Shown one piece after another: positions 37,025 to 55,464 of a DNA stretch of 64,000 nucleotides; within the stretch, counting starts at the first letter, position 1; the number at the start of each line of letters is the position of its first letter. Both the position numbers and the translations under genes were made by a program. The notes beneath the pieces are model-generated. The model was not told where the DNA came from. It did not search any database and was given only the letters and a program-made list of their open reading frames with translations. The DNA is from Acidimicrobiales bacterium (GTDB lineage: Bacteria > Actinomycetota > Acidimicrobiia > Acidimicrobiales > Aldehydirespiratoraceae), in the NCBI GenBank assembly GCA_033344915.1, contig JAWPML010000001.1, positions 4,358,263 to 4,422,262 on the forward strand, in the 5' to 3' direction.

Positions 37025-37480
37025 ATGACGGAATGGGACGCCGAGAGACTCACGCAGGGCAACTGGGACACGATCCCGTTCCTGAAACGCACGGGCGTGG
37101 TGGTGGACCACGCAGAGCGGGGGTTCGTGCGGCTGCGGATGCCGTTCGAGCCGAACGTCAACCATGTCGGGATGATGTACGCGGGCGCGCTCTTCACCCT
37201 CGCCGAGGTGCCGGGCGGCACGATCTTCATCACCACCTTCGACCCCAAGCGCTACTACCCGATCGTGAAGGACCTGAAGATCCGGTTCCGGCGACCGGCC
37301 ACGACGGACATCACCGTCGAGGTCCGCATCAGCGACGAGGAGGCACAGCGGGTGATGGACGAGGCCGACGCCAACGGCAAGGCCGACTACTCGTGGGAGT
37401 GCGAGCTGAAGGACGCCACCGGCGAGGTCGTCGCCATCACCCAGAACGAGTATCAGCTGCGGGCCCACGACCTGGGCTGA
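37025..37480 (+). CDS. Thioesterase-like hot-dog protein (YiiD C-terminal domain type)
   Basis: This 151-residue protein has a hot-dog fold pattern: GVVVDHAERGFVRLRMPF, NHVGMMYAGALFTLAEVPGG, and KDLKIRFRRPATTDI. It matches the putative thioesterase domain at the C-terminus of YiiD and related actinobacterial proteins. The Asn/His-containing NHVG loop is the expected active region. It starts at an ATG near the end of the opposite-strand sulfatase-like gene. Its 3' end overlaps the convergent guanine deaminase by 44 bp. Confidence 0.78.
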   Translation: MTEWDAERLTQGNWDTIPFLKRTGVVVDHAERGFVRLRMPFEPNVNHVGMMYAGALFTLAEVPGGTIFITTFDPKRYYPIVKDLKIRFRRPATTDITVEVRISDEEAQRVMDEADANGKADYSWECELKDATGEVVAITQNEYQLRAHDLG

Positions 37481-38729
37481 CGGCGACGCCGTCGACCCAC
37501 ACGTCGGTGATCGCGTCGGCGCCCCGCCGCACGATCTTCTCGAACACGCGGGCGTCGTCGTCCACCTCGGGCCAGACGCCGACCGCGTCGAGATCGATCG
37601 CCACGGCGTCGAAGTGGCGCCCCGGTTCGAGGACACCGGCGGGGATCCCGAGCAGCTCCGCCCCGCCCGCGGTCGCCATCCAGAACGCCCGGACGATGTC
37701 GATCGGGTCGCCGAGGTGACGGCTGCTCGTGACGGCGTGGGCGCACTGGGCGACGAGGGACGCCTCGGCGCCGCCGGCGATGTCGGTGCCGAGCCCCACG
37801 CGGAGACCCGCGTCGATCGCGGCCCGGGCGGGGAAGACGCGCTGCGAGAAGTAGGCGTTGCTCAACGGACAGTGGGCGACACCGGCGCCCCGGCCGATCA
37901 GTCGGGCGCGATCGTCGTCGGTGAGATGCGTTGCGTGGGCGAGCACCGTGTGGTCGGCGATCAAACCGAAGCGATCGAGTGCGGCGGCGTCCGTCATGCC
38001 GTGACGATCGAGCACGTAGGCGTGCTCCCAGTCGCTCTCGGAGCAGTGGGTCTGGATGCGGGTGGCCGTGGTCGCGGCGAGCTCGCCGAGGCCTTCCAGC
38101 GCGGCGTCGGTGCACGCGGGGATGAAGCGGGGCGTGACGATCGGCTCGACGAGGCCGGACCGCCCGCCCAGCCTTCGGATCGCCTCGATCGAGCGGGCAC
38201 TCGCCGCCACGGCCTCGGTGGCGGTGGCGTCGCGATACCACTCGGGCGTGCCCTCCGGGTGGTCCATCGCGACCCGGCCGACGAAGGCGCGTTGGCCGTG
38301 TCGGTGACACGCTTCGGCCAACGCCGTGGTGGCCGGCTCGTGGATACTGGCGTGGTACACGGCGGTGGTCGTGCCGAGCCCGAGGAGCGTGGGCACCATC
38401 GACTCCCAGACCTGCTCGGCGAAGGCCGGGTCGGCGCAACGGGCCTCGAGCGGGAAGGTGTGGTCGAACAGCCATTCCTCGAGGGGTCGGTCGAGGGCGG
38501 TGCCGAGTTGGGGCCACTGGGGCGCGTGGATGTGGGTGTCGATCAGGCCGGGGAGGAGCACGCTCGTGGCCGGCAGCTCGACGTCTTCCGTGTCGTCCTC
38601 GGTGGCGGGCCGGATCGACTCGATACGGCCCGCCGCGTCGACGGCGATCACCTGGTCGCGTCGAACCGTGTGCGTGTCCGGGTGCGGCGTCTGGTGGATC
38701 GTCGCCCGGACCGTGAACGCCCCGCTCAT
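37437..38729 (-). CDS. guaD: Guanine deaminase
   Basis: This 430-residue amidohydrolase converts guanine to xanthine plus ammonia. The signature PGLIDTHIHAPQWPQLGTAL and DRPLEEWLFDHTFPLEA, the second metal His in IQTHCSES, and the late GTDIAGG metal Asp all match bacterial guanine deaminases (EC 3.5.4.3). The ATG of MSGAFTVR overlaps the methyltransferase stop by 4 bp, so those two genes form one operon. It belongs to the purine-breakdown region that continues to 55.5 kb. It overlaps the thioesterase gene by 44 bp at the 3' side. Confidence 0.88.
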   Translation of the reverse strand: MSGAFTVRATIHQTPHPDTHTVRRDQVIAVDAAGRIESIRPATEDDTEDVELPATSVLLPGLIDTHIHAPQWPQLGTALDRPLEEWLFDHTFPLEARCADPAFAEQVWESMVPTLLGLGTTTAVYHASIHEPATTALAEACHRHGQRAFVGRVAMDHPEGTPEWYRDATATEAVAASARSIEAIRRLGGRSGLVEPIVTPRFIPACTDAALEGLGELAATTATRIQTHCSESDWEHAYVLDRHGMTDAAALDRFGLIADHTVLAHATHLTDDDRARLIGRGAGVAHCPLSNAYFSQRVFPARAAIDAGLRVGLGTDIAGGAEASLVAQCAHAVTSSRHLGDPIDIVRAFWMATAGGAELLGIPAGVLEPGRHFDAVAIDLDAVGVWPEVDDDARVFEKIVRRGADAITDVWVDGVAVSPGRGPAADTRSG

Positions 38730-39575: not shown

Positions 39576-40940
39576 TCAGATCGGCTGGAAGCGTCGGCTG
39601 GCGACGCGGTGGGCGGCGAGGTTGCCGCCGAGGTCGGGGGACACGAGGTGTCCGTCGCGCACGACGGCGCGGCCGTGGACGATCGTGTCGCGCGCGGCGG
39701 TCGGGCCACAGCGCAGCCAGCCTTCGATCGGATCGTCGAGCACGCCGGCGAACACGGGGCCGCTGAGGTCCCAGATGGCGACGTCGCCGACCGCGCCGAC
39801 CGAGAGTTCGCCGATCTCGCCCGTGCGGCCGAGGCAGCCGGCACCACCGCGGGTGGCGACCTCGAGGGCGATGCGGGCGGTCATCGCGTCGGCACCGGAC
39901 ACGAGCTTGCCCTGGAGCATCGAGAGTCGGGCCTCCTGCCACAGCGATGCCGAGTCGGCCGACGAGGAGCCGTCGCAGCCGAGGCCGACGGGACAGCCGG
40001 CGTGGCGCAGGTCGATCACCGGGGCGATGCCGGACGACAGGATCATGTTGGAGCTCGGGCAGTGGGCGATGCCGACGCCGGCCGCACCGAGCCGGGCGAC
40101 CTCGTCGGGATCCGGGCGGACCACGTGGGCGCCCCAGCTGCGATCGCTCATCCAGCCGACGTCCTCGTAGAGATCGACGGGGCGCATCCCGAAGGTCGCC
40201 AACGCGAACTCGTCGTCCTCGGCGTTCTCGGCGAGGTGGGTGTGGAGGCGGACGTCGAGCCGCTCGGCCAGCTCGGCGGTGCGCCGCATCAGGTCCGGGG
40301 TGACGGAGAACGGCGAACACGGCGCGAGCGCGATCCGCACCATGGCCCCGTGGGCCGGGTCGTGCCAGCGGGACACGTGGCGCTCGGACTCGGCGAGGAT
40401 GTCGTCCTCGTCGCGGACTGCGTCGTCGGGCGGGAGGCCACCGTCCTTCTCCGACAGCGACATCGACCCGTAGGTCGGATGGAAGCGCAGGCCGAGATCG
40501 ACGGCCGCCTCGATTTCGGCGCCGAGGAGATCGCCGGCTCGCGGCGGGTGGAGGTAGTGGTGATCGCTGGAGGTCGTGCAGCCCGAGAGCGCGAGCTCGG
40601 CGAGCCCCACCCACGCCGCCAGGTACTCGGACTCCTCGTCGATGGCCGCGGTCCACAGCGGGTAGAGCGACTGGAGCCAGCCGAAGAGCGGCGCCGCGGT
40701 CATGGGCGTGTAGGCCCGGGTCAGGTTCTGGAAGAGGTGGTGGTGGGTGTTGACGAGCCCCGGGGTGACGAGGCAGCCCTCGGCGGAGATGCGTTCGGTG
40801 GCCGACGGCGGTGCATCGTCCGGTCCGCCCACCCCGGACACGAGGCCGTCCGTGATCGCGACCCAGCCGCCGTCGAACTCGCGGCGGGTTGCGTCGACCG
40901 TCGCGACGGTCCAGGCGTCGTGGATGAGGAGGTCAGCCAT
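39576..40940 (-). CDS. 8-oxoguanine deaminase (amidohydrolase)
   Basis: This 454-residue enzyme matches 8-oxoguanine deaminases (EC 3.5.4.32): VNTHHHLFQNLTRAYTP, the segment SGCTTSSDHHYLHP, the metal His in HTHLAEN, and GCDGSSSADSASLWQEAR. It converts 8-oxoguanine to urate, so it would give the same intermediate as xanthine hydroxylation. It overlaps the upstream regulator by 8 bp, forming a regulator-deaminase operon. Hydroxyatrazine- or ammeline-type deaminases are close relatives, but the DHHYLHP signature favours 8-oxoguanine. Confidence 0.85.
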   Translation of the reverse strand: MADLLIHDAWTVATVDATRREFDGGWVAITDGLVSGVGGPDDAPPSATERISAEGCLVTPGLVNTHHHLFQNLTRAYTPMTAAPLFGWLQSLYPLWTAAIDEESEYLAAWVGLAELALSGCTTSSDHHYLHPPRAGDLLGAEIEAAVDLGLRFHPTYGSMSLSEKDGGLPPDDAVRDEDDILAESERHVSRWHDPAHGAMVRIALAPCSPFSVTPDLMRRTAELAERLDVRLHTHLAENAEDDEFALATFGMRPVDLYEDVGWMSDRSWGAHVVRPDPDEVARLGAAGVGIAHCPSSNMILSSGIAPVIDLRHAGCPVGLGCDGSSSADSASLWQEARLSMLQGKLVSGADAMTARIALEVATRGGAGCLGRTGEIGELSVGAVGDVAIWDLSGPVFAGVLDDPIEGWLRCGPTAARDTIVHGRAVVRDGHLVSPDLGGNLAAHRVASRRFQPI

Positions 40941-41430
40941 CCGTGTCCGCCTCGATCGCGTTCAGATAGTTGTAGATCGTGATGCGGGACACACCCATGA
41001 TCCGGGCGATGTCGTCCACCGCGCCGCGCAGCAGGAACGCGCCGCGCTCCTCGAGCATGCGCACGACTCGCTGCTTCTGATCGCGGTCCCATTCGGACGC
41101 CACCGTGCCGATCTCGCGCTCGGCCATGCGCAGGATGTCGTCGAGCGCATCGCGCAGGGTCGGGACCGGGATCTCCTCGGCCGTGGCCGCCACCCGCAGC
41201 TGGACCGAGGTCGCCCCGTTGGACATCGCGGCTCGGATCATCTCGGCGATCGCGTCGGCCATGGCGTCGACATCGCCTGCGGCGGACGAGGCGAACGGAC
41301 CGAGCTCGACGTCGATCTCGTGAGCTGCGAACGCGTCGACCGCGGCGGTCACGTGGGCGCCGGGGGAGCCTTCGACGAACGGCTCAACGAGGAACTCTGC
41401 AGCGATGTCGCCCGGGTCCGTCGCGGCCAT
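40933..41430 (-). CDS. Regulator: thiamine-binding (YkoF/MTH1187-like) domain + HTH_22 DNA-binding domain
   Basis: This 165-residue protein has two parts. Residues about 12-80 (FLVEPFVEGSPGAHVTAA, then VELGPFASSAAGD and SVQLRV) resemble the thiamine/hydroxymethylpyrimidine-binding domain family (PF01910). Residues 118-163 (VRMLEERGAFLLRGAVDDIA and MGVSRITIYNYLNAI) match the HTH_22 (DauR/YheO-like) domain. It is therefore a one-component sensor. It is divergent from the purine operon and overlaps the 8-oxoguanine deaminase gene, so it most likely controls both in response to a small nitrogen heterocycle. The ligand is inferred; the combination is uncommon. Confidence 0.75.
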   Translation of the reverse strand: MAATDPGDIAAEFLVEPFVEGSPGAHVTAAVDAFAAHEIDVELGPFASSAAGDVDAMADAIAEMIRAAMSNGATSVQLRVAATAEEIPVPTLRDALDDILRMAEREIGTVASEWDRDQKQRVVRMLEERGAFLLRGAVDDIARIMGVSRITIYNYLNAIEADTDG

Positions 41431-41464
41431 GGATGCGAGCGTACCCCACGACCCCAGCGACTTG

Positions 41465-41475
41465 TACATTTTGTA
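41465..41475. promoter_or_regulatory. AT-rich palindrome in the purine divergent promoter
   Basis: TACA-TTT-TGTA is a perfect-armed 11-bp palindrome inside an AT-rich stretch (CTTGTACATTTTGTAAAG, 41461-41478) that stands out from the GC-rich surroundings. It lies between the regulator start (41430) and the M20 start (41500) and is the best operator candidate for the HTH_22 regulator. Confidence 0.5.
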
Positions 41476-41499
41476 AAGGCCGTCTGGTACCGTCGTGTG

Positions 41500-42765
41500 A
41501 TGCCCGCGCCCACCGCCGACCTCCGCGTCGACATCGACCGCCTCGTCGGTCGCCTGGCCGCGCTCGCGGAGATCGGCGCGATCGAGGGCACCGAGGGCTG
41601 CGCCCGGCTCGCCCTCACCGACGAGGACAAGGCCGGCCGCGACCTCGTCGTCACCTGGATGCGCGACCTGGGCCTCGATGTCGCGGTCGACGGCATCGGC
41701 AACGTGGTCGCCACCATGGCCGGCGCAACCGACGGCCCTCCCGTGATGTGCGGCTCCCACATCGACACGGTGCGCACGGGAGGCCGCTACGACGGCAACC
41801 TCGGCGTGCTCGCCGGGCTGGAGGTGATCGAGACCGTGCAGGCCGCCGGGATCACGCCTCAGCGCCCCCTCGCCGTCGCGTTCTTCACCGACGAGGAAGG
41901 CGCCCGCTTCCCGCCGGACATGCTCGGCAGCCTCGTCTACGTCGGCGGGATGCCGCTCGAGGAGGCACTCGACATCGAAGGCATCGACGGCGCGCAGGTC
42001 GGGGCCGAGCTCGAGCGGATCGGCTACGCCGGCGCCGCGCCGCTGCCGGGTCGCGCGCCGCATGCGTTCGTGGAGCTGCACGTGGAGCAGGGTCCGGTGC
42101 TCGAGGCCGAGGGCATCACCATCGGCGCGGTCGAGAGCGTGCAGGGCATCAGCTGGCAGGAGCTGACCATCACCGGCCAGTCGAACCATGCGGGCACCAC
42201 CCCGATCGCGTTGCGTCGCGACCCCGGGCTCGTCGCCGCCCGCGTCGTCGCCTTCGCCCGCGAACTCGCCGACCGTTTCGGGCATCCCCAGGTGGCCACC
42301 GTGGGTGCCCTCGACTTCGCGCCCAACCTCGTGAACGTGGTGCCGGCGTCGGCCACGCTCACCGTCGATCTGCGCAACACCGACGAGGGCGTTCTCCAGA
42401 AGGCCGAGGCCGAACTGGCCGCGTTCGTCGCCGAGGCCGCGGCGGCGGAGCACTGCACCGTGGAGACCCGCACGCTCGCCCGCTTCGGGCCGGTCATCTT
42501 CGAGCCGACCGTCGTGGACCTGGTGGCGCGGGCGGCGTCGTCGCTCGGTCACACCGTTCGTCGCATGCCGTCGGGCGCAGGGCACGACGCCCAGATGCTC
42601 GCCCGCGTGTGCCCGACCGCGATGATCTTCACGCCGAGCAAGGACGGGCTGAGTCACAACCCCGCCGAGTACACCAGCCCCGCGGACCTCGAGGCGGGCG
42701 CGGACGTCCTCCTCCATGTGATGCTCTCGCTCGCGAGCGCCGACGAAGGGAACGCCGATGGCTGA
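41500..42765 (+). CDS. M20-family Zn-dependent amidohydrolase (N-carbamoyl-amino acid/allantoate type)
   Basis: This 421-residue enzyme is of the N-carbamoyl-L-amino-acid hydrolase/allantoate amidohydrolase group: metal ligands in GSHIDTVRTGGRYDG (H87, D98), the catalytic Glu in TDEEGARF (near 132-133), EQGPVLEAEG, SNHAGTTPIALRRD, and the closing GHDAQMLA and SHNPAEYT. It removes carbamoyl groups from ureido acids. It opens the nine-gene operon and overlaps ygfK by 8 bp. Its counterpart in gut purine clusters may be the YgeY peptidase, though the sequence type differs. The exact ureido substrate is unknown. Confidence 0.85.
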   Translation: MPAPTADLRVDIDRLVGRLAALAEIGAIEGTEGCARLALTDEDKAGRDLVVTWMRDLGLDVAVDGIGNVVATMAGATDGPPVMCGSHIDTVRTGGRYDGNLGVLAGLEVIETVQAAGITPQRPLAVAFFTDEEGARFPPDMLGSLVYVGGMPLEEALDIEGIDGAQVGAELERIGYAGAAPLPGRAPHAFVELHVEQGPVLEAEGITIGAVESVQGISWQELTITGQSNHAGTTPIALRRDPGLVAARVVAFARELADRFGHPQVATVGALDFAPNLVNVVPASATLTVDLRNTDEGVLQKAEAELAAFVAEAAAAEHCTVETRTLARFGPVIFEPTVVDLVARAASSLGHTVRRMPSGAGHDAQMLARVCPTAMIFTPSKDGLSHNPAEYTSPADLEAGADVLLHVMLSLASADEGNADG

Positions 42766-44515
42766 GGCAACGCCCCCACTCACCCCGATGTCGCTCGCCG
42801 CCCTGCTGGGCCGCATCGAGCACGAGTGGGCGAGCCGCAAGAAGATCTTCGACCTCCCGAACGCCCGGATCTGGCGCCCCGATCCCGACATCGACCTGTC
42901 GTTCGAGTTCCTCGGCCGCCGGTGCGAGTCGCCGATCGGTCCCGCCGCCGGTCCCCACAGTCAGATGGCGCAGAACATCGTCCTCGCGTGGCTCGGCGGC
43001 GGCCGACTGTTCGAGCTGAAGACGGTGCAGGTGATGGACGACCTGGAGATCGGTCGGCCCTGCATCGACATGCAGACCATCGGCTACAACATCGAGTGGA
43101 GCCAGGAACTCGAGGTGCCGGCGAGCCTCGAGGAGTACGTGAAGGCGTGGGTGACGCTGGAGATGCTGCGCCGCTGGGAGCCGCTGCGGGAGTTCGTCGG
43201 CGATCCCGGCGCCCACGTGTTCGACATGTCGGTCGGCTACGACCTCGCCGGCATCACGACCGAGAAGGTCGCCGCGTTCATCCGGGGCATGCACGACGCG
43301 TCGGCGGCGATCGAGGCGCTCCGGCCCCAGATCCAGGGCTCGTTCGCCGAGTTCCGCGACCTCGACTTCGACCCCGTCATCTCGGACACGCTCACCCTGT
43401 CGACGTTCCACGGCTGCCCGCCCGAGGAGATCGAGTCGATCACGAAGCACCTGATCGACGAGCACGGGCTCGACGTGATCGTGAAGCTCAATCCCACGCT
43501 GCTGGGCTACGAGACGGTCGCCGGCATCGTGAACGACGAACTCGGTTACGACACGGTGAGCGTGAAGGAATCCGCCTTCGCCGAGGACCTCCAGTTCGAG
43601 CGGGGCATCGAGCTCATCGGCGAACTCAACCAGTACGCCAAGGACCGCGGGCGCACGTTCGGCATCAAGCTGACCAACACGCTGGTCGTCGACAACACCC
43701 GTGGCTTCATGCCGGACGACACGATGTACCTCTCCGGCGCGCCGCTCCACGTCATCTCCACGAGCCTGCTCGACCGGCTGGCGGCGGCGCTGCCCCACAC
43801 GTTCATGATCCCGGGTCACGACGGCGACGTGATGGTGTCGTTCAGCGCCGGCGTCACCAAGGACAACCTCGCCGACACGCTGGCCACCGGTCTCAACCCG
43901 GCGACGATCTGCTCGGACCTGCTCAAGCCCGGCGGTTACGGGCGCATGGCCCCGATGCTGAAGGTGCTCACCGCCGCGGTCGCGGACGCCGGCGCCACGG
44001 ATCTCGCCACCTATCGGGCCGGGCGGCAGGCCGCGGCCGAGGCGGCGGGCCACGGCTCCGTCATCCGCGAGTACGTTGCGTCGCTGCGCGGTGAGGGACG
44101 CGAGCCGTACCACTTCACCAGCAACGAGAAGCTGCCCCGCGCCGTCGACCACGAGCTCGAGATGTGGGGCTGTGTCGCCTGCAACTTCTGCATCACGGTG
44201 TGTCCCAACGACGCGTTCTTCAACATCAAGAGCCTCGAGGGGATGCCGGACCGTCAGCAGTACCTCGTGCTCGCCGAGCTGTGCAACGAGTGCGGCAACT
44301 GCATGGTCTTCTGCCCCGAGGAGGGTGACCCGGCCCAGATCAAGCCGAAGCTCTACACCGACCCGGCGGTGTTCGCCGGTCGTGACGGCCAGGGCTTCCT
44401 GCTCGACGAGCGGGGCACGGTGGTCGACGCCCGCGCCGACGACGAGACCGTCTCGCTCGTGCAGCAACTCCTCGCCAGCGAACAGGGGCTGCCGCTCCAG
44501 GAGGTCACCGAGTGA
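42758..44515 (+). CDS. ygfK: YgfK-like protein lacking the NAD(P)H/FAD module
   Basis: This 585-residue protein matches the N-terminal half of YgfK: PIGPAAGPHSQMAQNIVLAW, FELKTVQ, FDMSVGYDLAGI, TLSTFHGCPPEEIE, VKLNPTLLGYE, GIKLTNTL and DLLKPGGYGRM. The C-terminus keeps two [4Fe-4S] motifs (CVACNFCITVCPN and CNECGNCMVFCPEEGDP) and the final GQGFLLDE. YgfK of E. coli is about 1030 residues with a GltD-like NADPH/FAD domain in between; that module is absent here. It should therefore take electrons from another protein. Members are tied to selenium-dependent molybdenum hydroxylase and purine loci. Confidence 0.85.
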   Translation: MAEATPPLTPMSLAALLGRIEHEWASRKKIFDLPNARIWRPDPDIDLSFEFLGRRCESPIGPAAGPHSQMAQNIVLAWLGGGRLFELKTVQVMDDLEIGRPCIDMQTIGYNIEWSQELEVPASLEEYVKAWVTLEMLRRWEPLREFVGDPGAHVFDMSVGYDLAGITTEKVAAFIRGMHDASAAIEALRPQIQGSFAEFRDLDFDPVISDTLTLSTFHGCPPEEIESITKHLIDEHGLDVIVKLNPTLLGYETVAGIVNDELGYDTVSVKESAFAEDLQFERGIELIGELNQYAKDRGRTFGIKLTNTLVVDNTRGFMPDDTMYLSGAPLHVISTSLLDRLAAALPHTFMIPGHDGDVMVSFSAGVTKDNLADTLATGLNPATICSDLLKPGGYGRMAPMLKVLTAAVADAGATDLATYRAGRQAAAEAAGHGSVIREYVASLRGEGREPYHFTSNEKLPRAVDHELEMWGCVACNFCITVCPNDAFFNIKSLEGMPDRQQYLVLAELCNECGNCMVFCPEEGDPAQIKPKLYTDPAVFAGRDGQGFLLDERGTVVDARADDETVSLVQQLLASEQGLPLQEVTE

Positions 44516-45498: not shown

Positions 45499-48155
45499 CC
45501 ACGTTCAACCTCAACGGCGCGGCAACCGAAGCTTCCGCCGACCACGAGCACCTGCTCGCCGCGTTGCGTGACGAGCTGGGTGTGCTGTCGCCCAAGGACG
45601 GTTGTTCGCCCTCGGGCCAGTGCGGTTGCTGCACGGTGCTGGTCGACGGCAAGGCCCGCGTGTCGTGTCAGACGTCGATGGAGAAGACCGAGGGCGCCGA
45701 GGTCGTCACCCTGGAGGGCATCGACGCCGGCGAACGGGACCGGATGGCTGCCGCGTTCGCCGCCCACGGCGCGCTCCAGTGCGGCTTCTGCACGCCGGGC
45801 ATCGTCGTCCGCACGAAGGCGATGCTCGACAAGAAGGGCAGTGAACTCACCCGCGACGGCGCGGCCCGCCTCCTGGGCGCCCACCTGTGTCGGTGCACCG
45901 GCTACACGAAGATCCTCGACGCGGTCGAGGCGCTCGCGGCCGACGAGATCCCCGTGGCGATCGCCCCGAAGGGCGTCGGCAGTCGCGGCGTGAAGTACGA
46001 GGCCGCCGAACTGTCGATGGGGGATCGCCCCTTCATCGACGACATGCAGCCGTCGGGCCTCCTCCATGGCGCGGTGCGTCTCACCGACCATGCCCGAGCC
46101 GACATCCTCGCGATCGACACCAGCGCGGCCGAAGCGGTGCCGGGCGTCGAGGCGGTCTTCACCGGCGCCGACGTGCCCGGTGAGCTCCGCGCCGGTCTGA
46201 TCCACAAGGACTGGCCGGTCTTCATCCCCGTCGGCGGCCGCACCAGCTATCTCGGCGACGTCCTCGCCGTGGTGGTCGCGGCGGATCGGCCGACCGCGCG
46301 TCGCGCCGCCCAGCTGATCGACGTGCGGTACGACGTCCGCCCGCCGATCGTGAACCCAATCGAAGCCATCGCGCCCGGCGCGGAGGACGCGGTCTGGGAG
46401 CTGGACGGCAACATCCTCTCCACCTCCACCTACAACCGGGGAGACGCCGACGCCGCACTGGACTCGGCCGCCCACGTCGTGCGCGAGACCTTCCAGACCC
46501 AGCGCATCGACCACGCGTTCCTCGAACCGGAGTCCACCCTCGCCGTGCCGGTCCCCGCGGGTGAGCCGTTGCCCCTGACCGCCGGCGGCACCAACGGTGA
46601 GCCCGTCGACTTCGACCGGCTCATGGTCTTCTCCGGCGGACAGGGCATCTGGGACGACCGCAACGACATCGCCCGCATGCTCGACGTCTCGACCGACCGG
46701 ATCGTCACCGAGCTGGTCAGCAACGGTGGCGCGTTCGGCGGCAAGGAGGACATGTCGAATCAGGCCCAGACGGCGCTCGCCGCGTGGCTCCTCGGACGGC
46801 CGGTGAAGATCACGTTCTCGCGTGAGGAGTCCTTCCTCGTCCACACCAAGCGCCACCCGATCCGGATGCACTACGAGGCGGGCTGCGACGACGAGGGTCG
46901 GTTGACGGCGCTGCGGATCCGCATGGTCGGCGACTCGGGCCCGTACGCGTCGGTCGGCATGAAGGTGCTGGAGCGGGCGGCGGGCCACGCCAGCGGCCCC
47001 TACGTCGTGCCGAACATCGACTGCGAAGCCATCGCGGCCCGCACGAACAACTCGGTGTGTGGCGCCTTCCGCGGGTTCGGGGCCAACCAGGCGCAGTTCG
47101 CCATGGAGGGCGTGATGGACCGGCTGGCCGAAAAGGTCGGCATCTCGGGTTGGGAGATCCGCAATCGCAACGTCATCTCACCCGGTGTCGTGTGGGGGCC
47201 CGGCCAGATCATGGACGACGGTTGCCTCGGCGCGCAGGCGTGTCTCGACGCGGTGAAGGTGCCGTACGAGGAGGCCGTGGCGGCCGGCAAGGCGGTCGGG
47301 GTCGGCCTCGGGCTCAAGAACTCGGGTCTCGGCAACGGCTTCAAGGAGATCGCCAGGGCGGTCGTGCACTTCCGGCCCGACGGCCCCGATGGAAGGAACA
47401 TCGTCGAGGTGCGGCACTGCTGGACGGAGATGGGCCAGGGCGTCCACACCGTCGCGCTCCAGGTCGCGGTCGAGGAACTCGGCGTCGCCGCCGAGGACGT
47501 CGTGGTCATCGTCGACTCGACCCGCGAGCTCGGCGCCGGGCAGACCACCGGCAGTCGCGGCACGCTGATGGGTGCCGGATCGGTCGCCGATGCGTGTCGC
47601 ATCGCGATGGCCGACGGCTGCAAGGTCGGCGTCGACTACGAGGGCGAGTACCGGGTCGACTGGACCAACTCGATGAACGACGGGGTCGAGAACCCGATCA
47701 TCCACTCGACCTTCGGCTACGCCGCGCAGCTCGTGGTGATGGATCCCGAGACGGGTGTGGTCGAGAACGTGGTCGCCGCCCACGATGTCGGTCGCGCCGT
47801 CAACCCGTTGCTGTGCGAGGGCCAGATCGAGGGGGCGGTGCACATGGGCCTCGGCTATGCGCTGAGCGAGGGGTTCCCCTGCGACGACGACGGTCGGCCG
47901 AGGAACGACACCCTGCGCAGCCTCGACATCATCCGGCCGAAGGACATGCCGCCCGTGGACGTCATCCTCGTCGAGGCGCCCCAGCCGAACGCGCCCTACG
48001 GCATCAAGGGAGTCGGCGAGATCGGTCTCGTCCCCACCGCCGGCGCGGTGGCCGCGGCGATGCACGCACGGGACGGGGAGTGGCGCAACGAACTCCCACT
48101 CGTCAACGAGGCGAACCGGGAGAACGCCGCCTCATGGGTGGGGTCGTGGAGCTGA
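45495..48155 (+). CDS. Selenium-dependent-XDH-type molybdenum hydroxylase ([2Fe-2S]+MoCo fusion)
   Basis: This 886-residue protein begins with two [2Fe-2S] domains (CSPSGQCGCCTVLVDG near 38-53; QCGFCTPG and CRCTGY near 100-140). The long molybdopterin part follows: RIDHAFLEPES, GGAFGGKEDMSNQAQ, GAFRGFGANQAQFAME, GAGQTTGSRGTLMGAG, and the catalytic Glu in KGVGEIGLVP. It matches the Se-dependent xanthine dehydrogenase group. No FAD domain is present, so electrons may pass to YgfK or to the FAD fusion at 51770. No selD, yqeB or yqeC homologue is seen in the window. It would hydroxylate xanthine or a related purine. Confidence 0.85.
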   Translation: MTTFNLNGAATEASADHEHLLAALRDELGVLSPKDGCSPSGQCGCCTVLVDGKARVSCQTSMEKTEGAEVVTLEGIDAGERDRMAAAFAAHGALQCGFCTPGIVVRTKAMLDKKGSELTRDGAARLLGAHLCRCTGYTKILDAVEALAADEIPVAIAPKGVGSRGVKYEAAELSMGDRPFIDDMQPSGLLHGAVRLTDHARADILAIDTSAAEAVPGVEAVFTGADVPGELRAGLIHKDWPVFIPVGGRTSYLGDVLAVVVAADRPTARRAAQLIDVRYDVRPPIVNPIEAIAPGAEDAVWELDGNILSTSTYNRGDADAALDSAAHVVRETFQTQRIDHAFLEPESTLAVPVPAGEPLPLTAGGTNGEPVDFDRLMVFSGGQGIWDDRNDIARMLDVSTDRIVTELVSNGGAFGGKEDMSNQAQTALAAWLLGRPVKITFSREESFLVHTKRHPIRMHYEAGCDDEGRLTALRIRMVGDSGPYASVGMKVLERAAGHASGPYVVPNIDCEAIAARTNNSVCGAFRGFGANQAQFAMEGVMDRLAEKVGISGWEIRNRNVISPGVVWGPGQIMDDGCLGAQACLDAVKVPYEEAVAAGKAVGVGLGLKNSGLGNGFKEIARAVVHFRPDGPDGRNIVEVRHCWTEMGQGVHTVALQVAVEELGVAAEDVVVIVDSTRELGAGQTTGSRGTLMGAGSVADACRIAMADGCKVGVDYEGEYRVDWTNSMNDGVENPIIHSTFGYAAQLVVMDPETGVVENVVAAHDVGRAVNPLLCEGQIEGAVHMGLGYALSEGFPCDDDGRPRNDTLRSLDIIRPKDMPPVDVILVEAPQPNAPYGIKGVGEIGLVPTAGAVAAAMHARDGEWRNELPLVNEANRENAASWVGSWS

Positions 48156-49173
48156 ACCAGACGCCCGGCCTCGTCTGCGCGCATCACCACCTCTACTCCG
48201 CCCTGGCGAGGGGGATGCCCGCCCCGCCCCGCACGCCCACCGGGTTCCTCGAGATCCTCGAGCTGGTGTGGTGGCGTCTCGATCGTGCGCTCGACCTCGA
48301 CACGATCGAGTGGTCGGCCAGGCTCGGCGCGCTCGAAGCACTCGAGCGGGGCTGCACGGCGATCATCGACCACCACGAGTCGCCGAACGCGATCGACGGC
48401 TCGCTGAGCGTCATCGCCGACGCGTGCGCCGAGCTCGGGGTGCGCGTGAACACGGCATACGGCGTGACCGACCGCCACGGCGCCGCCGGCGCGGCCGCGG
48501 GGCTCGCCGAGAACGACCGGTTCCTGGCCGCCGGTGGTCGGGGCATGGTCGGCCTCCACGCCGCGTTCACCTGCGAGGACGACACCCTCGCGGCCGCGGC
48601 CGAGATCGCCCTCCGTCACGGCGTGGGTGTCCACGTCCACGTGGCCGAGGGCGACCGCGACACCTGGGAGCGGTTGCGGCCCCATGCCCGCGACGACTGG
48701 TGGCTCGTCCACGGCGTCCACCTGCCGGACGACCACGGGCTGCCCGGAACGATCGTGCACAACCCGCGATCCAACATGAACAACGCGGTCGGCTATGCCC
48801 GCCCGACCCGGTTCGCGAACCCGACCGGCCTCGGCACCGACGGCATCGGGGCCGACATGCTCGACGAGTTCCGCGTCGCCTTCGTCAAGGCCCGCGAGCA
48901 CGACGTCACCACCACGCCCGACGACGTCTGGGCGTGGCTGGAGCCGGGCTGGTCGCTGATGCCCGAGGCCCGCGACGACCGGGTCACCTGGAACTACGAG
49001 CCCATGGATCCCTGGCGCCTGGCCTACAGCCCGGGGGTGTCGCCGACACGCGTCGAGATCGACGGTGAGGTGGTGTTCGCCGACGGCGCCGCCACCCGTG
49101 TCGACGGCGCGGAGATCCGGGCCAAGGCGGCGGAGGCCGCACAACGTCTCTTCACGAAACTGGAGCAACTCTG

Positions 49174-49174
<1 letters not shown>
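48134..49174 (+). CDS. ssnA: SsnA-like amidohydrolase, N-terminally shortened
   Basis: This 346-residue protein matches SsnA: PGLVCAHHHLYSALARGM, WWRLDRALDLDT, IIDHHESPNAIDGSLS, HVHVAEGD, VHNPRSNMNNAVGY and GLGTDGIGADML. E. coli SsnA has 442 residues. Here the first roughly 55 residues (beta-sandwich start) are missing, the region before the C-terminus is shortened, and the start overlaps the xdh stop by 22 bp. Metal ligands (HHH, H and D) remain. It may be a compact active variant or need a partner. A longer N-terminus would have to lie inside the xdh gene and has no start or motif support. Confidence 0.8.
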
Positions 49175-50670
<1,496 letters not shown>

Positions 50671-50682
50671 CGCCGCGCCGTC

Positions 50683-51765
50683 ATGTCGGACAATCCGTTC
50701 CTCCGCTACCGCGACCGGCTCGACAGCCATGGCGCCGCGCTCGCCGGCGGGCTGAGCGACGGGTGGTTCGTCGAGACGGTCGAACGGCTCGATGCCGCGG
50801 TCGCCGAGGTCGACGGCCACGGGTTCCGGGTCACCCCGACGGAGGCGATGCCCGCGCTCGCGGCGGCAGCCGGGCTCGACGTCGACCTCCACGTGAAGAT
50901 CGAGGTCGACAATGTCGGCGGCTCGCACAAGGCGCGGCACCTGTTCGGCGTCGCGCTCCGCATGCTGGTGGACGAGGCGCTCGGCGCGCCGCCGCCCGAG
51001 CGGCTGGCGATCGCGAGCTGCGGCAACGCGGCGCTCGGCGCGTCGGTCATCGCCCGGGCAATGGGCCGCGAGCTCGCCGTGTTCGTGCCGACGTGGGCCG
51101 ATCCGCCGGTGGTCGAGACGCTCGCCGCGCAGGGGGCGGACCTGCGGGTCTGTGAGCGCCGGGAAGGCGAGGCGGGCGATCCGTGCTATCTCCGCTTCGG
51201 CGAGGAGGTCGCCGCGGGGGCCCGCCCGTTCAGCGTGCAGGGCACCGACACGCCATCGACCTTCGACGGCGGCCGCACCATCGGGTGGGAGCTGGCCGAC
51301 CAGGTCGACGGTCTCGAAGGGATCTACGTGCAGGTCGGTGGCGGAGCGCTGGCCACCGCGACGTCGCTCGGTCTCGGCGCGGTCCCGCTCCATCCGGTGC
51401 AGGCGGCCGGATGCGCGCCGTTGCGGCGGGCGTGGGATCGGCTCGCTCCCGAGTTCGACTTCGACGCGGCCGCGGCGGCGCCGGAGGCGTTCATGTGGCC
51501 GTGGGCCGATCCCGCCAGTGAGGCATCCGGGATCCTCGACGACATCACCTATGACTGGCTGCCGCTACTGCGCCGCACCGTGGAGACGGGGGGCGAGCCG
51601 ATCGTCGCCGACGAGGCGACCGTGATGCGGGCCCACGAGCTCGGTCTGGCCGCCGGCGTGCGCGTGTCGGCCACCGGGACGGCCGGCCTGGCGGGCCTCA
51701 TGACATCGCCGCCGCCCCCGGGAACGAGGGTGGCTGTCCTGTTCACCGGAGTGGAGCGAGAATAG
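50683..51765 (+). CDS. PLP-dependent enzyme, threonine dehydratase/synthase-like
   Basis: This 360-residue fold-type II PLP enzyme carries the PLP Lys in NVGGSHKARHLFG (about 85), SCGNAALGAS (substrate loop), a VQVGGGALAT phosphate loop and a C-terminal SATGTAGLAG. It fits the threonine dehydratase/synthase and diaminopropionate ammonia-lyase region. In uric-acid clusters of gut bacteria the corresponding gene is ygeX (diaminopropionate ammonia-lyase), but this protein is not a close YgeX match by eye. It is 12 bp after the previous PLP gene and 4 bp before the next, so it is co-transcribed. Confidence 0.75.
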   Translation: MSDNPFLRYRDRLDSHGAALAGGLSDGWFVETVERLDAAVAEVDGHGFRVTPTEAMPALAAAAGLDVDLHVKIEVDNVGGSHKARHLFGVALRMLVDEALGAPPPERLAIASCGNAALGASVIARAMGRELAVFVPTWADPPVVETLAAQGADLRVCERREGEAGDPCYLRFGEEVAAGARPFSVQGTDTPSTFDGGRTIGWELADQVDGLEGIYVQVGGGALATATSLGLGAVPLHPVQAAGCAPLRRAWDRLAPEFDFDAAAAAPEAFMWPWADPASEASGILDDITYDWLPLLRRTVETGGEPIVADEATVMRAHELGLAAGVRVSATGTAGLAGLMTSPPPPGTRVAVLFTGVERE

Positions 51766-51769: not shown

Positions 51770-53227
51770 ATGACGGTCATCGGCGAGCTCCACCACGTGC
51801 AACGGCCCGGGGCCCGCATCGAGCGCGTCCTCCGTCCCGTCGACTGGCCCGCCGCGCTGGCGGCGCTGCGCGACAACCCCGGGGCTCGCCCGGTCGCGGG
51901 CGGTACCGATCTCGTGCTGGACCTGGCCCGCACGCCGGGCCCCGCGGTCACGCTCGTCGACCTCAGCGCCGTCGCCGACGCCCACGACATCGCCGAGACC
52001 GACACCGCGTTCGTGCTCGGCGGTGGCGTCACCCACAATCAGATCGTCGGCGATCCCCGGTTCGTTCGCCATGCTCTGCCGCTCGCGCAGGCCTGCCTCG
52101 AGATCGGGTCGCCGCAGCTCCGGAATCGGGCGACGATCGCCGGGAACCTCGCCACGGCGAGTCCCGCGAACGACTCGATCAGCGCGCTGATGGCGCTCGA
52201 TGCATCCGTGGTGCTCTCCCGGCTCGCCCGTGACGCCGTGGCCGAGCGCGAGGTGGCGGTCGCCGACTTCTTCACCGGGTTCCGCTCGACGGTCTGCGAA
52301 CCCGGCGAGCTGATCACGGCGATCCACGTGCCCAAACTCACCGCCGACCAGACCGGGATCTGGGTCAAGCTCGGGCTCCGTAAGGCGCAGGCGATCTCTG
52401 TCGTGCACGCGGCCATGGTCGTCACCCGCGACGGTGGGACGGTGACGCAGGCGCGGCTCGCGCTCGGGTCGGTGGCGCCGACGGTCGTGCTGAGCGATGC
52501 CTTCCGCGACACCCTCGTCGGCACGCGGCTGGACTCCGCCGCCATCGCCGCCGCAGCCGCCGCGGTGGCGGCCGGGATCGAGCCGATCGACGACGTGCGG
52601 GCGACGGCCGACTACCGACGAGCCGTCACCGAGACGCTGATCGCACGCGCCCTGGCGGCGATCGCCGGCGGACAGGCCGGGGCCCACTGGCCGCCGGATC
52701 CACCGCTGCTCGGTGCCCGCACGCCGGTCACCTCGCCCCTCCGTGATGAAGTCACCGACGGCACGCCGATCGAAGTCCTCGTCGACGGTCGGCTCGCGGT
52801 CGGGGCGGGCGCAGCCGGCACCACGCTGCTCGACTGGCTGCGCGACGAACTGTCGCCGCCCGTACGCGGGGCCAAGGAAGGCTGCGCCGAGGGCGAGTGC
52901 GGTGCCTGCACCGTGCGCATGGACGGCGCCGCGGTGATGAGCTGCCTCGTCCCCGCCGCGCAGGCGGACGGCAGCGACGTGCGCACGGTCGAGGATCTCG
53001 CCGAGGGCGAGCGGCTCTCGGCGCTCCAGTCGGCGTTCGTCGACGAGTTCGCGGTCCAGTGCGGGTTCTGCATCCCCGGGTTCCTCGTCGCGGGATCGGC
53101 GCTACTGGACGAGGTCGCGGCGCCCACCGACGAGCAGATCGAGCTCGGGCTCGCCGGCAACCTCTGCCGGTGTACCGGCTACTACCCGATCGCCACCGCC
53201 GTGCGCGTGGCCGGAAGGTCCTCGTGA
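51770..53227 (+). CDS. FAD-binding + [2Fe-2S] fusion subunit of molybdenum hydroxylase
   Basis: This 485-residue protein has an N-terminal CO-dehydrogenase medium-type FAD domain (ARPVAGGTDLVLD, GGGVTHNQIV, RNRATIAGNLATASPANDS) and a C-terminal [2Fe-2S] domain (GCAEGECGACTVRMDG; QCGFCIPG; CRCTGYYP). The order FAD then FeS is the reverse of XdhA. Cys ligands for both clusters are present. It partners the MoCo subunit (4-bp GTGA overlap) and could also serve the FAD-less hydroxylase upstream. It passes electrons to NAD+ or a quinone; the acceptor is unknown. Confidence 0.85.
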   Translation: MTVIGELHHVQRPGARIERVLRPVDWPAALAALRDNPGARPVAGGTDLVLDLARTPGPAVTLVDLSAVADAHDIAETDTAFVLGGGVTHNQIVGDPRFVRHALPLAQACLEIGSPQLRNRATIAGNLATASPANDSISALMALDASVVLSRLARDAVAEREVAVADFFTGFRSTVCEPGELITAIHVPKLTADQTGIWVKLGLRKAQAISVVHAAMVVTRDGGTVTQARLALGSVAPTVVLSDAFRDTLVGTRLDSAAIAAAAAAVAAGIEPIDDVRATADYRRAVTETLIARALAAIAGGQAGAHWPPDPPLLGARTPVTSPLRDEVTDGTPIEVLVDGRLAVGAGAAGTTLLDWLRDELSPPVRGAKEGCAEGECGACTVRMDGAAVMSCLVPAAQADGSDVRTVEDLAEGERLSALQSAFVDEFAVQCGFCIPGFLVAGSALLDEVAAPTDEQIELGLAGNLCRCTGYYPIATAVRVAGRSS

Positions 53228-55464
53228 GCGCGGGCGGCGTCGGCGAATCGTCGGTCCGTTTCGACGCGGCGTCCAAGGTCACCGGCGCGGCGACCTACCC
53301 GGCGGATCGGGTGCCGCCCGACGCCCTGCACGCGGTCGTCGTGTTCACGAATCAGCCCCACGCCCGGCTCGTGGCGCTGGACGTGTCGGCGGCGGAGGCG
53401 ACCGAAGGTGTCGTGGCGGTGGTGACGGCCGCGGACGTGCCGGTGAACGAGTACGGGCTCACCATGTTCGACCAGCCGGTGCTCATCGGTGTCGACCACA
53501 CGGGCCGTTCGGACGTGCCCTGCGACGTGAGCCGGTGGGAGGCGGACCATCTCGCGGTGGTCGTCGCGGAGACCCGGGCGGCGGCCGACGCAGGCGCGGC
53601 GGCGATCCGGGCCGAGTGGGACGAGCTGCCCCTCGCCCCCGACGTCGAATCCGCCCGCACGGACGAGGTCCTCGTCCACGACGGTCGGGTGCCGTCGAAC
53701 GTCTACTACGAACTGCCCATCCGCAAGGGCGACATCGAGGCGGGATGGGCCGCCGCGGACGTCATCGTCGAGGGCACCTACGGGCTGCCCCACCAGGAAC
53801 ACGCCTACCTCCAGGTCGAGGCCGCGACCGGGTGGGTCGACGACGAGGGACGCATCACCGTCGAGACCTCCGGCCAATGGACCCACGAGGACCGCGAGCA
53901 GATCGCCCACGCCCTCGACGTGCCCGACGACCGGGTCCGGGTCATCTACGCCGCGATCGGCGGCGCCTTCGGCGGCAAGGAGGACATGAGCCTCCAGATC
54001 GTGATCGCCCTCGCCGTGCGCAAGCTCCGATCGCTCGGCATCGACCGGCCGGTGCACTGTTCCTGGTCCCGTGAGGAGTCGATCGTCGGCCATCACAAGC
54101 GCCATCGTGCGGTGATCGAAGCGCGGCTCGGCGCCACGAACGACGGCCGCATCACCGCGGTCGAGGCGGACGTCTGGCTCGACGCCGGGGCCTACAACTA
54201 CACGTCCAACAAGGTGCTCGGGAACGCCCACCTCTCCGTGGCGGGCGCCTACGTCGTGCCGAACGCGCGCATCAACAGTCGTGCCGTCTACACCACCTCG
54301 GTGCCGGGCGGTGCGTTCCGGGGATTCGGTGGACCCCAGGGTGCGTTCGTCGCGGAGACCCAGATGAACAAGCTCGCCGCGATCCTCGACATGGACCCGA
54401 TCGAACTGCGGCGCCGCAACATGCTCCGCGAAGGCGACATCGGGATCACCCAGGTGCCGCTGCCGGCCGGCGTCGGACTGCCCGACGTGATCGAGGCGTG
54501 CGCGGCGCGGGCACCGAGTGATGGTCCGCCGGTCGAGGCCGCGCCGCTGCGGTCGGTCGCGTCACTCCCGGCGCCCGGGACCGCCATCCGGCGCGGTCGG
54601 GGATTCGCCGTCGGCATGAAGAACGTCGGCTTCTCGTTCGGCTTCCCGGAGCGGTGCGAGGCCGAGGTGCACTTCCACGGCGATGCGGAGGACGAGCGGC
54701 CCGCGACGGTCGACGTGTTCCACGGAGGTGCCGAGGTCGGCCAGGGCAACCACCAGGCGATCCTGCAGATGACCGCCGACGCATCCGGCGTGGACCTGGA
54801 ACAGGTGCGCGGCCACTTCTCGGACACGGCGACCTCGGGCGACGCCGGCTCGGCGTCCGCGAGTCGGCTCACCTTCATGGCGGGGAACTCCGTCCTCGGC
54901 GCGGTCGAGGAGGCGGAGAAGGCATGGCAGGACGGTGAGCGGCCTGCGGTCGGGCGGTTCCGCTACACGCCGCCCCCGACGGAGACCCTCGATCCGGTCA
55001 CCGGCGAGGGCCAGCCCAACTTCTCGTACGGCTACATGGCGATGTCGGCCGACGTGTCCGTGGACACCGGGACCGGTCACATCCGGGTCGACCGGGTGGT
55101 CTCCGCGCACGACGTCGGCCGGGTCATCAATCCGGCGCTGCTGCGCGGCCAGATCGAGGGGGCCGTCGTGCAGGCCCACGGCTACGTGATCAGCGAGAAC
55201 CTCGTCGTCACCGACGGCCGGATCCGCAATCCTCGGCTGTCCCAGTACCTGATCCCCGGCATCGGCGACATCCCGACCGAGGTCGAAGCGGTGATCCTCG
55301 AGCTCGGCGACCCGGTTGGCCCCTGGGGCGCCCGCGGCGTCGCCGAGATGCCCTACATCACCTATGCCCCGGCCGTGATCGCCGCCGTCCACGACGCCAC
55401 CGGCGTCTGGTTCGACACCTTCCCGCTCACCCCCTCCCGCGTCCTCGCCGCCCTCCGCCCCTGA
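53224..55464 (+). CDS. Molybdenum hydroxylase large (MoCo) subunit, second copy
   Basis: This 746-residue subunit starts at a GTG overlapping the previous stop. It has GIDRPVHCSWSREESIVGHHKRH-type segments (split: GIDRPVHCSW, then EESIVGHHKRH), GGAFGGKEDMSLQIVIALA, GGAFRGFGGPQGAFVAE, VGQGNHQA, TSGDAGSASASRL and the closing GARGVAEMPYITY with the catalytic Glu. It belongs to the xanthine dehydrogenase family and is shorter than XdhD types. It forms a complete hydroxylase with the preceding FAD/FeS protein. It ends the 14-kb operon, 22 bp before the first repeat of the DUF559 unit. Confidence 0.85.
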   Translation: MSAGGVGESSVRFDAASKVTGAATYPADRVPPDALHAVVVFTNQPHARLVALDVSAAEATEGVVAVVTAADVPVNEYGLTMFDQPVLIGVDHTGRSDVPCDVSRWEADHLAVVVAETRAAADAGAAAIRAEWDELPLAPDVESARTDEVLVHDGRVPSNVYYELPIRKGDIEAGWAAADVIVEGTYGLPHQEHAYLQVEAATGWVDDEGRITVETSGQWTHEDREQIAHALDVPDDRVRVIYAAIGGAFGGKEDMSLQIVIALAVRKLRSLGIDRPVHCSWSREESIVGHHKRHRAVIEARLGATNDGRITAVEADVWLDAGAYNYTSNKVLGNAHLSVAGAYVVPNARINSRAVYTTSVPGGAFRGFGGPQGAFVAETQMNKLAAILDMDPIELRRRNMLREGDIGITQVPLPAGVGLPDVIEACAARAPSDGPPVEAAPLRSVASLPAPGTAIRRGRGFAVGMKNVGFSFGFPERCEAEVHFHGDAEDERPATVDVFHGGAEVGQGNHQAILQMTADASGVDLEQVRGHFSDTATSGDAGSASASRLTFMAGNSVLGAVEEAEKAWQDGERPAVGRFRYTPPPTETLDPVTGEGQPNFSYGYMAMSADVSVDTGTGHIRVDRVVSAHDVGRVINPALLRGQIEGAVVQAHGYVISENLVVTDGRIRNPRLSQYLIPGIGDIPTEVEAVILELGDPVGPWGARGVAEMPYITYAPAVIAAVHDATGVWFDTFPLTPSRVLAALRP

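What the first reader, a model, noticed from the sequence alone, without database searches (positions are those of the whole stretch)
37437..55464. Compact actinobacterial version of the ygfK/ssnA/xdhD purine-degradation locus
Guanine deaminase, 8-oxoguanine deaminase, a regulator and a nine-gene operon (M20 hydrolase, YgfK, DCase-like nitrilase, Se-XDH-type hydroxylase, SsnA, two PLP enzymes, FAD/FeS and MoCo subunits) lie together. YgfK, SsnA and XdhD-type proteins are known markers of anaerobic uric-acid/purine breakdown in gut bacteria. Here the set has other partners (DCase, a large PLP enzyme) and lacks the usual carbamoyltransferase and dihydropyrimidinase. It may be a different route from urate to amino acid and ammonia.
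Basis: partly seen in the sequence, partly recalled or inferred. Interest (0 to 1): 0.75.

Follow-up and report, generated by a model that had tools for sequence, protein, structure and literature searches.

The report
Reductive urate-breakdown operon in Acidimicrobiia
An actinobacterium in which no uricase gene could be found carries a tight operon that probably breaks uric acid down by the oxygen-independent "reductive" route known from gut bacteria, but with several enzymes swapped for unrelated ones.

Summary
The locus is real: a nine-gene operon (41500-55464) plus a divergent arm (37437-41430). Best reading: a rebuilt form of the reductive urate ("yanthine") pathway described in 2025 for E. 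coli and C. difficile. The YgfK is short: it matches both ends of E. coli YgfK but lacks the middle, and its model is a DHODH/DPD-type barrel. SsnA and a FAD-less Mo-hydroxylase are present. By sequence, an N-carbamoyl-D-amino-acid hydrolase (DCase) and an AllC/hydantoinase-type M20 stand in for YgeW/UacY and YgeY, and two unusual PLP enzymes for YgeX. No hydantoinase lies in the operon; two are elsewhere in the genome. No uricase or OHCU decarboxylase was found; haem-copper oxidases were.

In 119 genomes (own plus relatives) 70 have SsnA: 25 with short YgfK, 43 with an F420-type reductase, 0 both, 2 neither. All 70 have PALP1 or a diaminopropionate ammonia-lyase; the 7 without PALP1 have the latter. 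Uricase occurs in 1 of 119. In some relatives that ammonia-lyase sits in this very cluster, pointing to diaminopropionate. No activity was measured. The 2025 papers tie this route to anaerobes, though one already lists SsnA in Actinomycetota. New variant of a known kind.

The parts
37437..38729 (-). guanine-deaminase-like amidohydrolase (guanine to xanthine, inferred)
   Evidence: TIGR02967 350 bits, cut-off 375; Amidohydro_1 186 bits
38726..39520 (-). SAM-dependent methyltransferase, role unknown
   Evidence: Methyltransf_31 81 bits; start
39576..40940 (-). 8-oxoguanine deaminase (to urate, inferred)
   Evidence: PRK08203 572.7 bits, cut-off 532
40933..41430 (-). regulator: C-terminal HTH_22, weak N-terminal thiamine-binding-like domain
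   Evidence: HTH_22 65 bits (cut-off 29.6), Thiamine_BP 19.6 bits (below its cut-off of 24.9)
41462..41478 (.). candidate operator, TTGTACATTTTGTAAAG, between regulator and operon
   Evidence: matches palindrome CTTTACAnnnTGTAAAG at 12 of 14; 26 of 28 Reg-operon gaps of up to 400 bases score 11 or more, shuffle mean 7.6
41500..42765 (+). M20 amidohydrolase, hydantoinase/carbamoylase (AllC-like) type; 3-ureido cleavage proposed
   Evidence: TIGR01879 398 bits over 204; PRK09290.1-5 414 over 399; 23% identity to YgeY over 368
42758..44515 (+). short YgfK (585 aa): DHODH/DPD-type barrel plus two 4Fe-4S motifs, no NAD(P)H/FAD part; yanthine reductase proposed
   Evidence: matches E. coli YgfK 5-464 and 898-980; model like DPD 529-933, Z 23.7, rmsd 2.8, 289 aligned
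44512..45498 (+). N-carbamoyl-D-amino-acid hydrolase (DCase) by sequence; 2-ureido cleavage proposed
   Evidence: best 11 PDB sequences are DCases, 336-364 bits; the next match is 73 bits
45495..48155 (+). 2Fe2S+MoCo hydroxylase of the Se-XDH type without FAD domain; urate to yanthine proposed
   Evidence: TIGR03311 761 bits, cut-off 830; 2Fe2S and MoCo domains
48134..49174 (+). SsnA-like aminohydrolase, 346 aa as I place its start, lacking the N-terminal ~50 residues; ring opening proposed
   Evidence: PRK07203 260 bits, cut-off 444; 37% identity to E. coli SsnA over 341
49174..50670 (+). PALP1, 498-aa PLP enzyme of cysteine-synthase fold; diaminopropionate lyase role proposed
   Evidence: PALP 49 bits; model Z 28.7 to O-acetylserine sulfhydrylase 3spx, rmsd 3.2, 313 aligned; co-occurrence
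50683..51765 (+). PALP2, 360-aa PLP enzyme; racemase or second lyase proposed
   Evidence: PALP 106 bits; only PDB sequence matches at E 0.001 are serine racemase and threonine deaminase, weak
51770..53227 (+). XDH FAD subunit fused to 2Fe2S subunit
   Evidence: FAD_binding_5, CO_deh_flav_C, Fer2_2
53224..55464 (+). XDH molybdopterin subunit (xanthine to urate proposed)
   Evidence: TIGR03196 489 bits, below its cut-off of 784; MoCoBD_1 246 bits

Best explanation
The locus turns purines into urate and takes urate apart by the reductive route. Guanine deaminase, 8-oxoguanine deaminase and the FAD-containing XDH make urate. The FAD-less Se-XDH-like enzyme removes the 6-oxo group to give yanthine (2,8-dioxopurine). 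Short YgfK reduces the ring, taking electrons from ferredoxin or a similar carrier, since it lacks the NAD(P)H module. SsnA opens the pyrimidine ring, and a hydantoinase encoded elsewhere opens the hydantoin, giving (R)-2,3-diureidopropionate. DCase removes the 2-ureido group and the M20 enzyme the 3-ureido group. PALP1 with PALP2 turns diaminopropionate into pyruvate and ammonia. An HTH_22 regulator acts on the palindrome at 41462-41478. Shown here: gene content, conservation, co-occurrence, predicted folds. Inferred: every reaction, the electron donor, the hydantoinase in trans, the order of ureido cleavage, the regulation.
For: YgfK, SsnA and an XDH homologue are signature steps of the published route (PMC12507026). 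Short YgfK matches both ends of E. coli YgfK and lacks the middle; its model is the DHODH/DPD barrel. Of 80 short-YgfK loci, 51 hold the Se-XDH-like gene, 48 DCase, 42 SsnA, 33 M20 and 11 a relative of a DAP ammonia-lyase (matches of at least 33% identity, many loci cut by contig ends); the one scanned scores 319 over a cut-off of 276. In G074 that lyase lies between SsnA and YgfKs, after SsnA as PALP1/PALP2 do in the window. Among 119 genomes: SsnA 70; of these 25 have short YgfK, 43 the F420-type reductase, 0 both; 35 of the 43 lie within 200 bases of SsnA. All 70 have PALP1 or DAPAL. Uricase in 1 of 119, none found in this genome, nor OHCU decarboxylase. Two D-hydantoinase-family genes in the genome (541 and 496 bits over 393); in G052 one 60% identical to the first lies by DAPAL, the Se-XDH-like gene and SsnA. 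ABC transporters with a PnrA-like binding protein (one scanned) accompany about 20 of the 80 loci.
Against: No reaction was measured. No hydantoinase is in the operon or showed in any of the 80 loci. The XdhD glutamate proposed to direct yanthine formation (Glu606) falls in a gap for our enzyme, in a poorly aligned stretch. YgfK, Se-XDH and SsnA all score below the curated cut-offs. PALP1 and DAPAL occur together in 9 genomes, G074 among them, so PALP1 may not simply replace DAPAL. Two SsnA genomes (G028, G042) have neither reductase; one genome (G025) has short YgfK but no SsnA match. Where a genome gave many candidates only the first 15-18 were scored, so absences are not absolute. The related genomes are not independent samples.
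Confidence: 0.7

Rival explanations
1. The operon degrades another oxidised purine (8-oxoguanine, or xanthine directly) with the same ring-opening logic, and urate is not the main substrate.
For: An 8-oxoguanine deaminase sits at the operon; its relatives occur in 18 of 80 short-YgfK loci; two Mo-hydroxylases of untested specificity.
Against: 8-oxoguanine deaminase yields urate (recalled), which feeds the same route; the gene set follows the published urate pathway apart from the replaced parts and the missing hydantoinase.
Confidence: 0.15
2. The genes degrade hydantoins or N-carbamoyl-D-amino acids (a D-amino-acid scavenging route), and YgfK and SsnA are coincidental neighbours.
For: DCase and the M20 hydantoinase/carbamoylase family are the classic hydantoin-process enzymes (the process is recalled).
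Against: No hydantoinase in the cluster; of 80 short-YgfK loci 48 hold DCase, 51 the Mo-hydroxylase and 42 SsnA; SsnA occurs with one of two reductases in 68 of 70 genomes.
Confidence: 0.07
3. Urate is broken down by an oxidative route through an unrelated urate hydroxylase (for example a FAD-dependent HpxO type), and this operon acts on other compounds.
For: HpxO-type enzymes were not searched for; the M20 scores as AllC-like.
Against: No uricase and no OHCU decarboxylase found; uricase in 1 of 119 genomes.
Confidence: 0.05

Closest known systems
Reductive urate degradation cluster of E. coli (xdhD-ygfM-ygfK-ssnA-hyuA-ygeW-yqeA-ygeY-ygeX), Li et al. 2025, PMC12507026
   Same: Mo-hydroxylase, YgfK-family reductase and SsnA together; urate-producing genes (guanine deaminase, XDH) close by. 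Li et al. already list Actinomycetota among the phyla with SsnA
   Different: Short YgfK without NAD(P)H module, no YgfM-like FAD subunit next to the Se-XDH-like gene, DCase and AllC-like M20 instead of YgeW/YqeA and YgeY, PALP1/PALP2 instead of YgeX, hydantoinase not in the operon
C. difficile variant (XdhD without YgfM, UacX, UacY), described in the same paper
   Same: Neither reductive enzyme carries a FAD/NAD(P)H part, which those authors read as ferredoxin use; hydrolytic rather than phosphorolytic ureido cleavage
   Different: The reductase here is YgfK-family (282 bits to E. coli YgfK) with no significant match to E. coli PreA, used as a PydA-type control (best E 0.033); DCase instead of the D-aminoacylase-like UacY
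Chloroflexota variant with a putative F420-dependent yanthine reductase, same paper
   Same: 43 of the 119 genomes carry an F420-type luciferase-like enzyme, next to SsnA in 35 of 43
   Different: The window's own genus (7 of 7 genomes) has short YgfK instead; the two are never found together in the 119 genomes
D-hydantoinase / D-carbamoylase process (recalled)
   Same: A DCase by sequence and D-hydantoinase-family genes in the genome
   Different: Set here among purine-ring reduction and opening genes

Membership tests
E. coli-type reductive urate gene cluster | YgfK-family reductase present (full length) | tested here: not met
   TIGR03315 454 bits against 835; matches E. coli YgfK 5-464 and 898-980, middle absent
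E. coli-type reductive urate gene cluster | SsnA homologue | tested here: met
   37% identity over 341 to E. coli SsnA; best NCBIfam match is SsnA, though below its cut-off, 260 against 444
E. coli-type reductive urate gene cluster | Mo-hydroxylase that reduces urate to yanthine | not testable with these tools
   27% identity to E. coli XdhD; Glu606 falls in a gap of a poorly aligned stretch
E. coli-type reductive urate gene cluster | HyuA-type hydantoinase in the cluster | tested here: not met
   none in the operon nor in 80 relatives' loci; two elsewhere in the genome
E. coli-type reductive urate gene cluster | YgeW/YqeA or UacY in the cluster | tested here: not met
   none among the operon's genes; the rest of the genome was not searched for them
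E. coli-type reductive urate gene cluster | YgeY-type M20 | tested here: not met
   the operon's M20 is of the TIGR01879 type, 23% identity to YgeY; the rest of the genome was not searched for YgeY
E. coli-type reductive urate gene cluster | YgeX (diaminopropionate ammonia-lyase) | tested here: not met
   no match at E 1e-40 in this genome to a relative's DAPAL (15 of 19 candidates scored); PALP1 and PALP2 are 22% and 23% identical to YgeX
N-carbamoyl-D-amino-acid hydrolase (DCase) | closest to solved DCases, with catalytic motifs | tested here: met
   364 bits to 8i99; next family 73 bits; PEL, RKVH and CNDRRW motifs present (that these hold the Glu-Lys-Cys triad is recalled)
Selenium-dependent molybdenum hydroxylase | yqeB (TIGR03309) with selD in the genome | tested here: not met
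   selD yes, yqeB no; marker logic from passages of PMC2276186
DHODH/DPD-type barrel | fold match over the barrel | tested here: met
   Z 22.7-24.3 for the 50 rows shown; pig DPD 1gt8 Z 23.7, rmsd 2.8, 289 aligned. FMN binding itself was not tested

The most novel reading that the evidence does not exclude
The reductive urate route is not an anaerobe or gut speciality. It is the usual way of urate breakdown in a large group of oxygen-respiring, environmental Acidimicrobiia, which have lost or never had uricase and have rebuilt the pathway with a ferredoxin-type YgfK or an F420 reductase, a D-carbamoylase, and a two-enzyme PLP module (racemase plus lyase) in place of YgeX.
Probability: 0.5. Interest if true: 0.78.

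Novelty: new variant of a known kind. Interest (0 to 1): 0.62.

Why it matters
Li et al. (PMC12507026) assign the oxidative route to aerobes, and the 2025 commentary (PMC12990295) calls the reductive route restricted to obligate or facultative anaerobes and leans to a gut-driven origin. Li et al. do list Actinomycetota among SsnA-bearing phyla; in the parts I read they name no aerobic user. An actinobacterial order with SsnA in 70 of 119 genomes and uricase in 1, and with haem-copper oxidases in the one genome tested for them, weighs against both views. The variant also bears on an open question named in that commentary, which ureido group leaves first: a DCase should act on the 2-ureido group of the R isomer, so its product identifies the intermediate. 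New parts for uricolytic probiotics (short reductase, hydrolytic DCase) follow if the roles hold.

Tried and rejected
Selenium dependence: selD was found but not yqeB, so I do not call the hydroxylase selenium-dependent. XdhD Glu606 as a specificity test: inconclusive, the region aligns badly. PydA/UacX identity of the reductase: not supported against E. coli PreA (best E 0.033), although the fold class is the same; C. difficile UacX itself was not at hand. In the structure searches no DAP ammonia-lyase is among the 50 rows shown for PALP1; such absence proves nothing. Hydantoinase within the gaps of split clusters: looked for, not found. Use of carbamoyltransferases to settle the ureido order: L157 has two carbamoyltransferases (one over the aspartate-carbamoyltransferase cut-off, 244 against 237; one ornithine-type, weakly YgeW-like, 149 against 453), a carbamate-kinase relative, DCase and a beta-ureidopropionase-like gene side by side, so it does not decide. 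Viral contigs: 50 pattern matches, none encoding a relative. Paper searches: Ilumatobacter with purine and uric acid (2 unrelated listings), uric acid with D-carbamoylase or diaminopropionate (the two known papers and one unrelated), Acidimicrobiia with F420-dependent and purine (0), yanthine (the two known papers); no listing reports this variant. Most subscription papers are not held, and Liu et al. 2025 is known to me only through PMC12990295. A search for the structure paper of diaminopropionate ammonia-lyase found nothing of use. HpxO-type urate hydroxylases, allantoicase, and YgeW/YqeA, YgeY and UacY elsewhere in the genome were not searched.


Full report
WHAT IS THERE. The window lies at C1:4358263-4422262 of a 4.48-Mb single-contig genome. 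Reading-frame composition, Pfam and NCBIfam give a nine-gene plus-strand operon at 41500-55464 with overlaps of 1-22 bases or gaps of at most 12, and a divergent arm: regulator, 8-oxoguanine deaminase, methyltransferase, guanine-deaminase-like. Three details differ: the methyltransferase was not named, the YgfK is short, and selenium use is not supported.

RELATIVES. A scan of genome contigs found 344 relatives of the short YgfK; the best 80 were kept, and only these were seen: 78 have actinobacterial titles, mostly Acidimicrobiales, Acidimicrobiia or Ilumatobacter, and two other titles (L103 Acidobacteria, L159 Armatimonadetes), which may be binning errors. Genes near it in these 80 loci: Se-XDH-like 51, DCase 48, SsnA 42, M20 33, regulator 30, PALP1 27, PALP2 20, ABC transporter 18-22, 8-oxoguanine deaminase 18, XDH FAD/FeS 13, DAPAL 11; hydantoinase 0 (BLAST relatives at 33% identity or more; loci are often cut by contig ends). 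The transporter's binding protein, scanned in one relative, is PnrA-like (PF02608, 125 bits); that PnrA binds purine nucleosides is recalled.

SHORT YGFK. BLAST to E. coli YgfK gives residues 8-482 on 5-464 (35%, 282 bits) and 472-551 on 898-980 (38%), so about 430 residues in the middle are missing. In the long YgfK of G031 (93% identical in G021) the middle matches GltD-like NAD(P)-binding families. Two CxxCxxCxxxC motifs are at 472 and 509. The AlphaFold model (mean pLDDT 80.8) has the DHODH/DPD barrel: pig DPD 529-933, Z 23.7, rmsd 2.8, 289 aligned. Li et al. (PMC12507026; parts 1-3 of 7, the Discussion and passages seen) reason that C. difficile enzymes lacking FAD parts take electrons from ferredoxin; the same inference fits here, for the Se-XDH-like enzyme too.

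CO-OCCURRENCE. In 119 genomes (own included): short YgfK 26, SsnA 70, DAPAL 16, PALP1 64, uricase 1, F420-type luciferase-like reductase at 65% identity or more 43. Among the 70 with SsnA: 25 short YgfK, 43 F420-type, 0 both, 2 neither (G028, G042); among the 49 without SsnA, 1 short YgfK (G025) and 48 neither. The F420-type gene lies within 200 bases of SsnA in 35 of 43; in the other 8 it is 12 kb away or on another contig. It matches F420 families but below their cut-offs, so F420 use is likely, not shown. All 70 SsnA genomes have PALP1 (63) or DAPAL; the 7 without PALP1 all have DAPAL; 9 have both; PALP1 occurs once without SsnA (G112). Fisher values ignore relatedness and should be read as descriptive, and in genomes with many candidates only the first 15-18 were scored. 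Genus g3 holds both reductase types (G023, G033, G038 short YgfK; G008, G017, G036, G040 F420-type) and both genomes with neither, so at least one swap happened within a genus. Li et al. report the F420-type neighbour for Chloroflexota and SsnA in Actinomycetota; the split within one actinobacterial order is, in the parts I read, not described there.

THE LATER STEPS. DCase is clear by sequence: the eleven best PDB sequences are N-carbamoyl-D-amino-acid hydrolases (336-364 bits), then 73 bits. Li et al. report a D-stereospecific HyuA and give YgeW/UacY the 2-ureido group; the commentary (PMC12990295, read whole) says Liu et al. give YgeW the 3-ureido group. In this order the pairs vary: DCase with M20 (window); DCase with a beta-ureidopropionase-like gene (L159, L161, L163); in G098 a YgeY (431 bits over 321) with an Amidohydro_3 protein beside the Se-XDH-like gene, SsnA and the F420-type gene, without DCase in the stretches taken. 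These pairings suggest DCase takes the 2-ureido group and the partner the 3-ureido group; they do not settle which job YgeW does.

THE PLP PAIR. PALP1 has the cysteine-synthase fold (Z 28.7 to 3spx, rmsd 3.2, 313 aligned; model pLDDT 80.0). Where E. coli YgeX and DAPAL have Asp-Gly-Asn, PALP1 has Thr-Gly-Asn (invariant in 22) and PALP2 Cys-Gly-Asn. That this Asp handles the D isomer in YgeX is recalled, not checked. With PALP2's weak serine-racemase match this suggests racemase plus L-lyase, as a guess. PALP2 stands next to PALP1 in 8 of 9 PALP1 stretches taken from genomes with no short-YgfK match; the exception, G098, has DAPAL. In G074, whose cluster holds DAPAL, PALP1 is also present on another contig.

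REGULATION. A palindrome CTTTACAnnnTGTAAAG is matched at 11 or more of 14 positions in 26 of 28 regulator-operon gaps of up to 400 bases, mean 11.7 against 7.6 in shuffles (longer gaps dropped). The consensus was drawn from such gaps. A stricter pattern without mismatches hit 16 of 36.

AEROBIC SETTING. Three COX1-family matches in the window's genome (530, 486 and 114 bits) indicate oxygen respiration. Relatives were not tested for it, and whether the route runs in air is unknown.

VERDICT. A new variant of the reductive urate pathway, likely at 0.7; the boldest claim, that it is the standard route in an aerobic environmental lineage, at 0.5.

Noticed in passing
own genome C1:2930802-2935503 (L070:1803-6504): An F420-type luciferase-like gene (40% to the SsnA-linked one), a D-hydantoinase-family gene, a CN_hydrolase and an aminotransferase lie together: it looks like a reductive pyrimidine pathway with an F420-type reductase in place of dihydropyrimidine dehydrogenase.
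   Followed up: partly
own genome C1:2921842-2926871 (L069:7843-12872): A second cassette of CN_hydrolase, aminotransferase and D-hydantoinase, followed by a likely aldehyde dehydrogenase (the last judged by eye).
   Followed up: partly
L042 (G031) and L045 (G021): Two relatives carry a long YgfK next to SsnA (1189 aa; 866 bits over 835 in G031, 93% identical in G021) as well as a short YgfK next to DAPAL elsewhere.
   Followed up: partly
L036, L037, L046: In three relatives short YgfK lies at or near a POR-domain gene (POR plus DUF6537 in L036; the other two cluster with it), which may be a ferredoxin-reducing 2-oxoacid oxidoreductase and a possible electron source.
   Followed up: no
own genome C1:1225971-1226897: The selD match contains an in-frame TGA, perhaps a selenocysteine codon.
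   Followed up: no
window 28590-33478: Two divergent GH3 glycosidases, with a sulfatase at 34646-36970.
   Followed up: no
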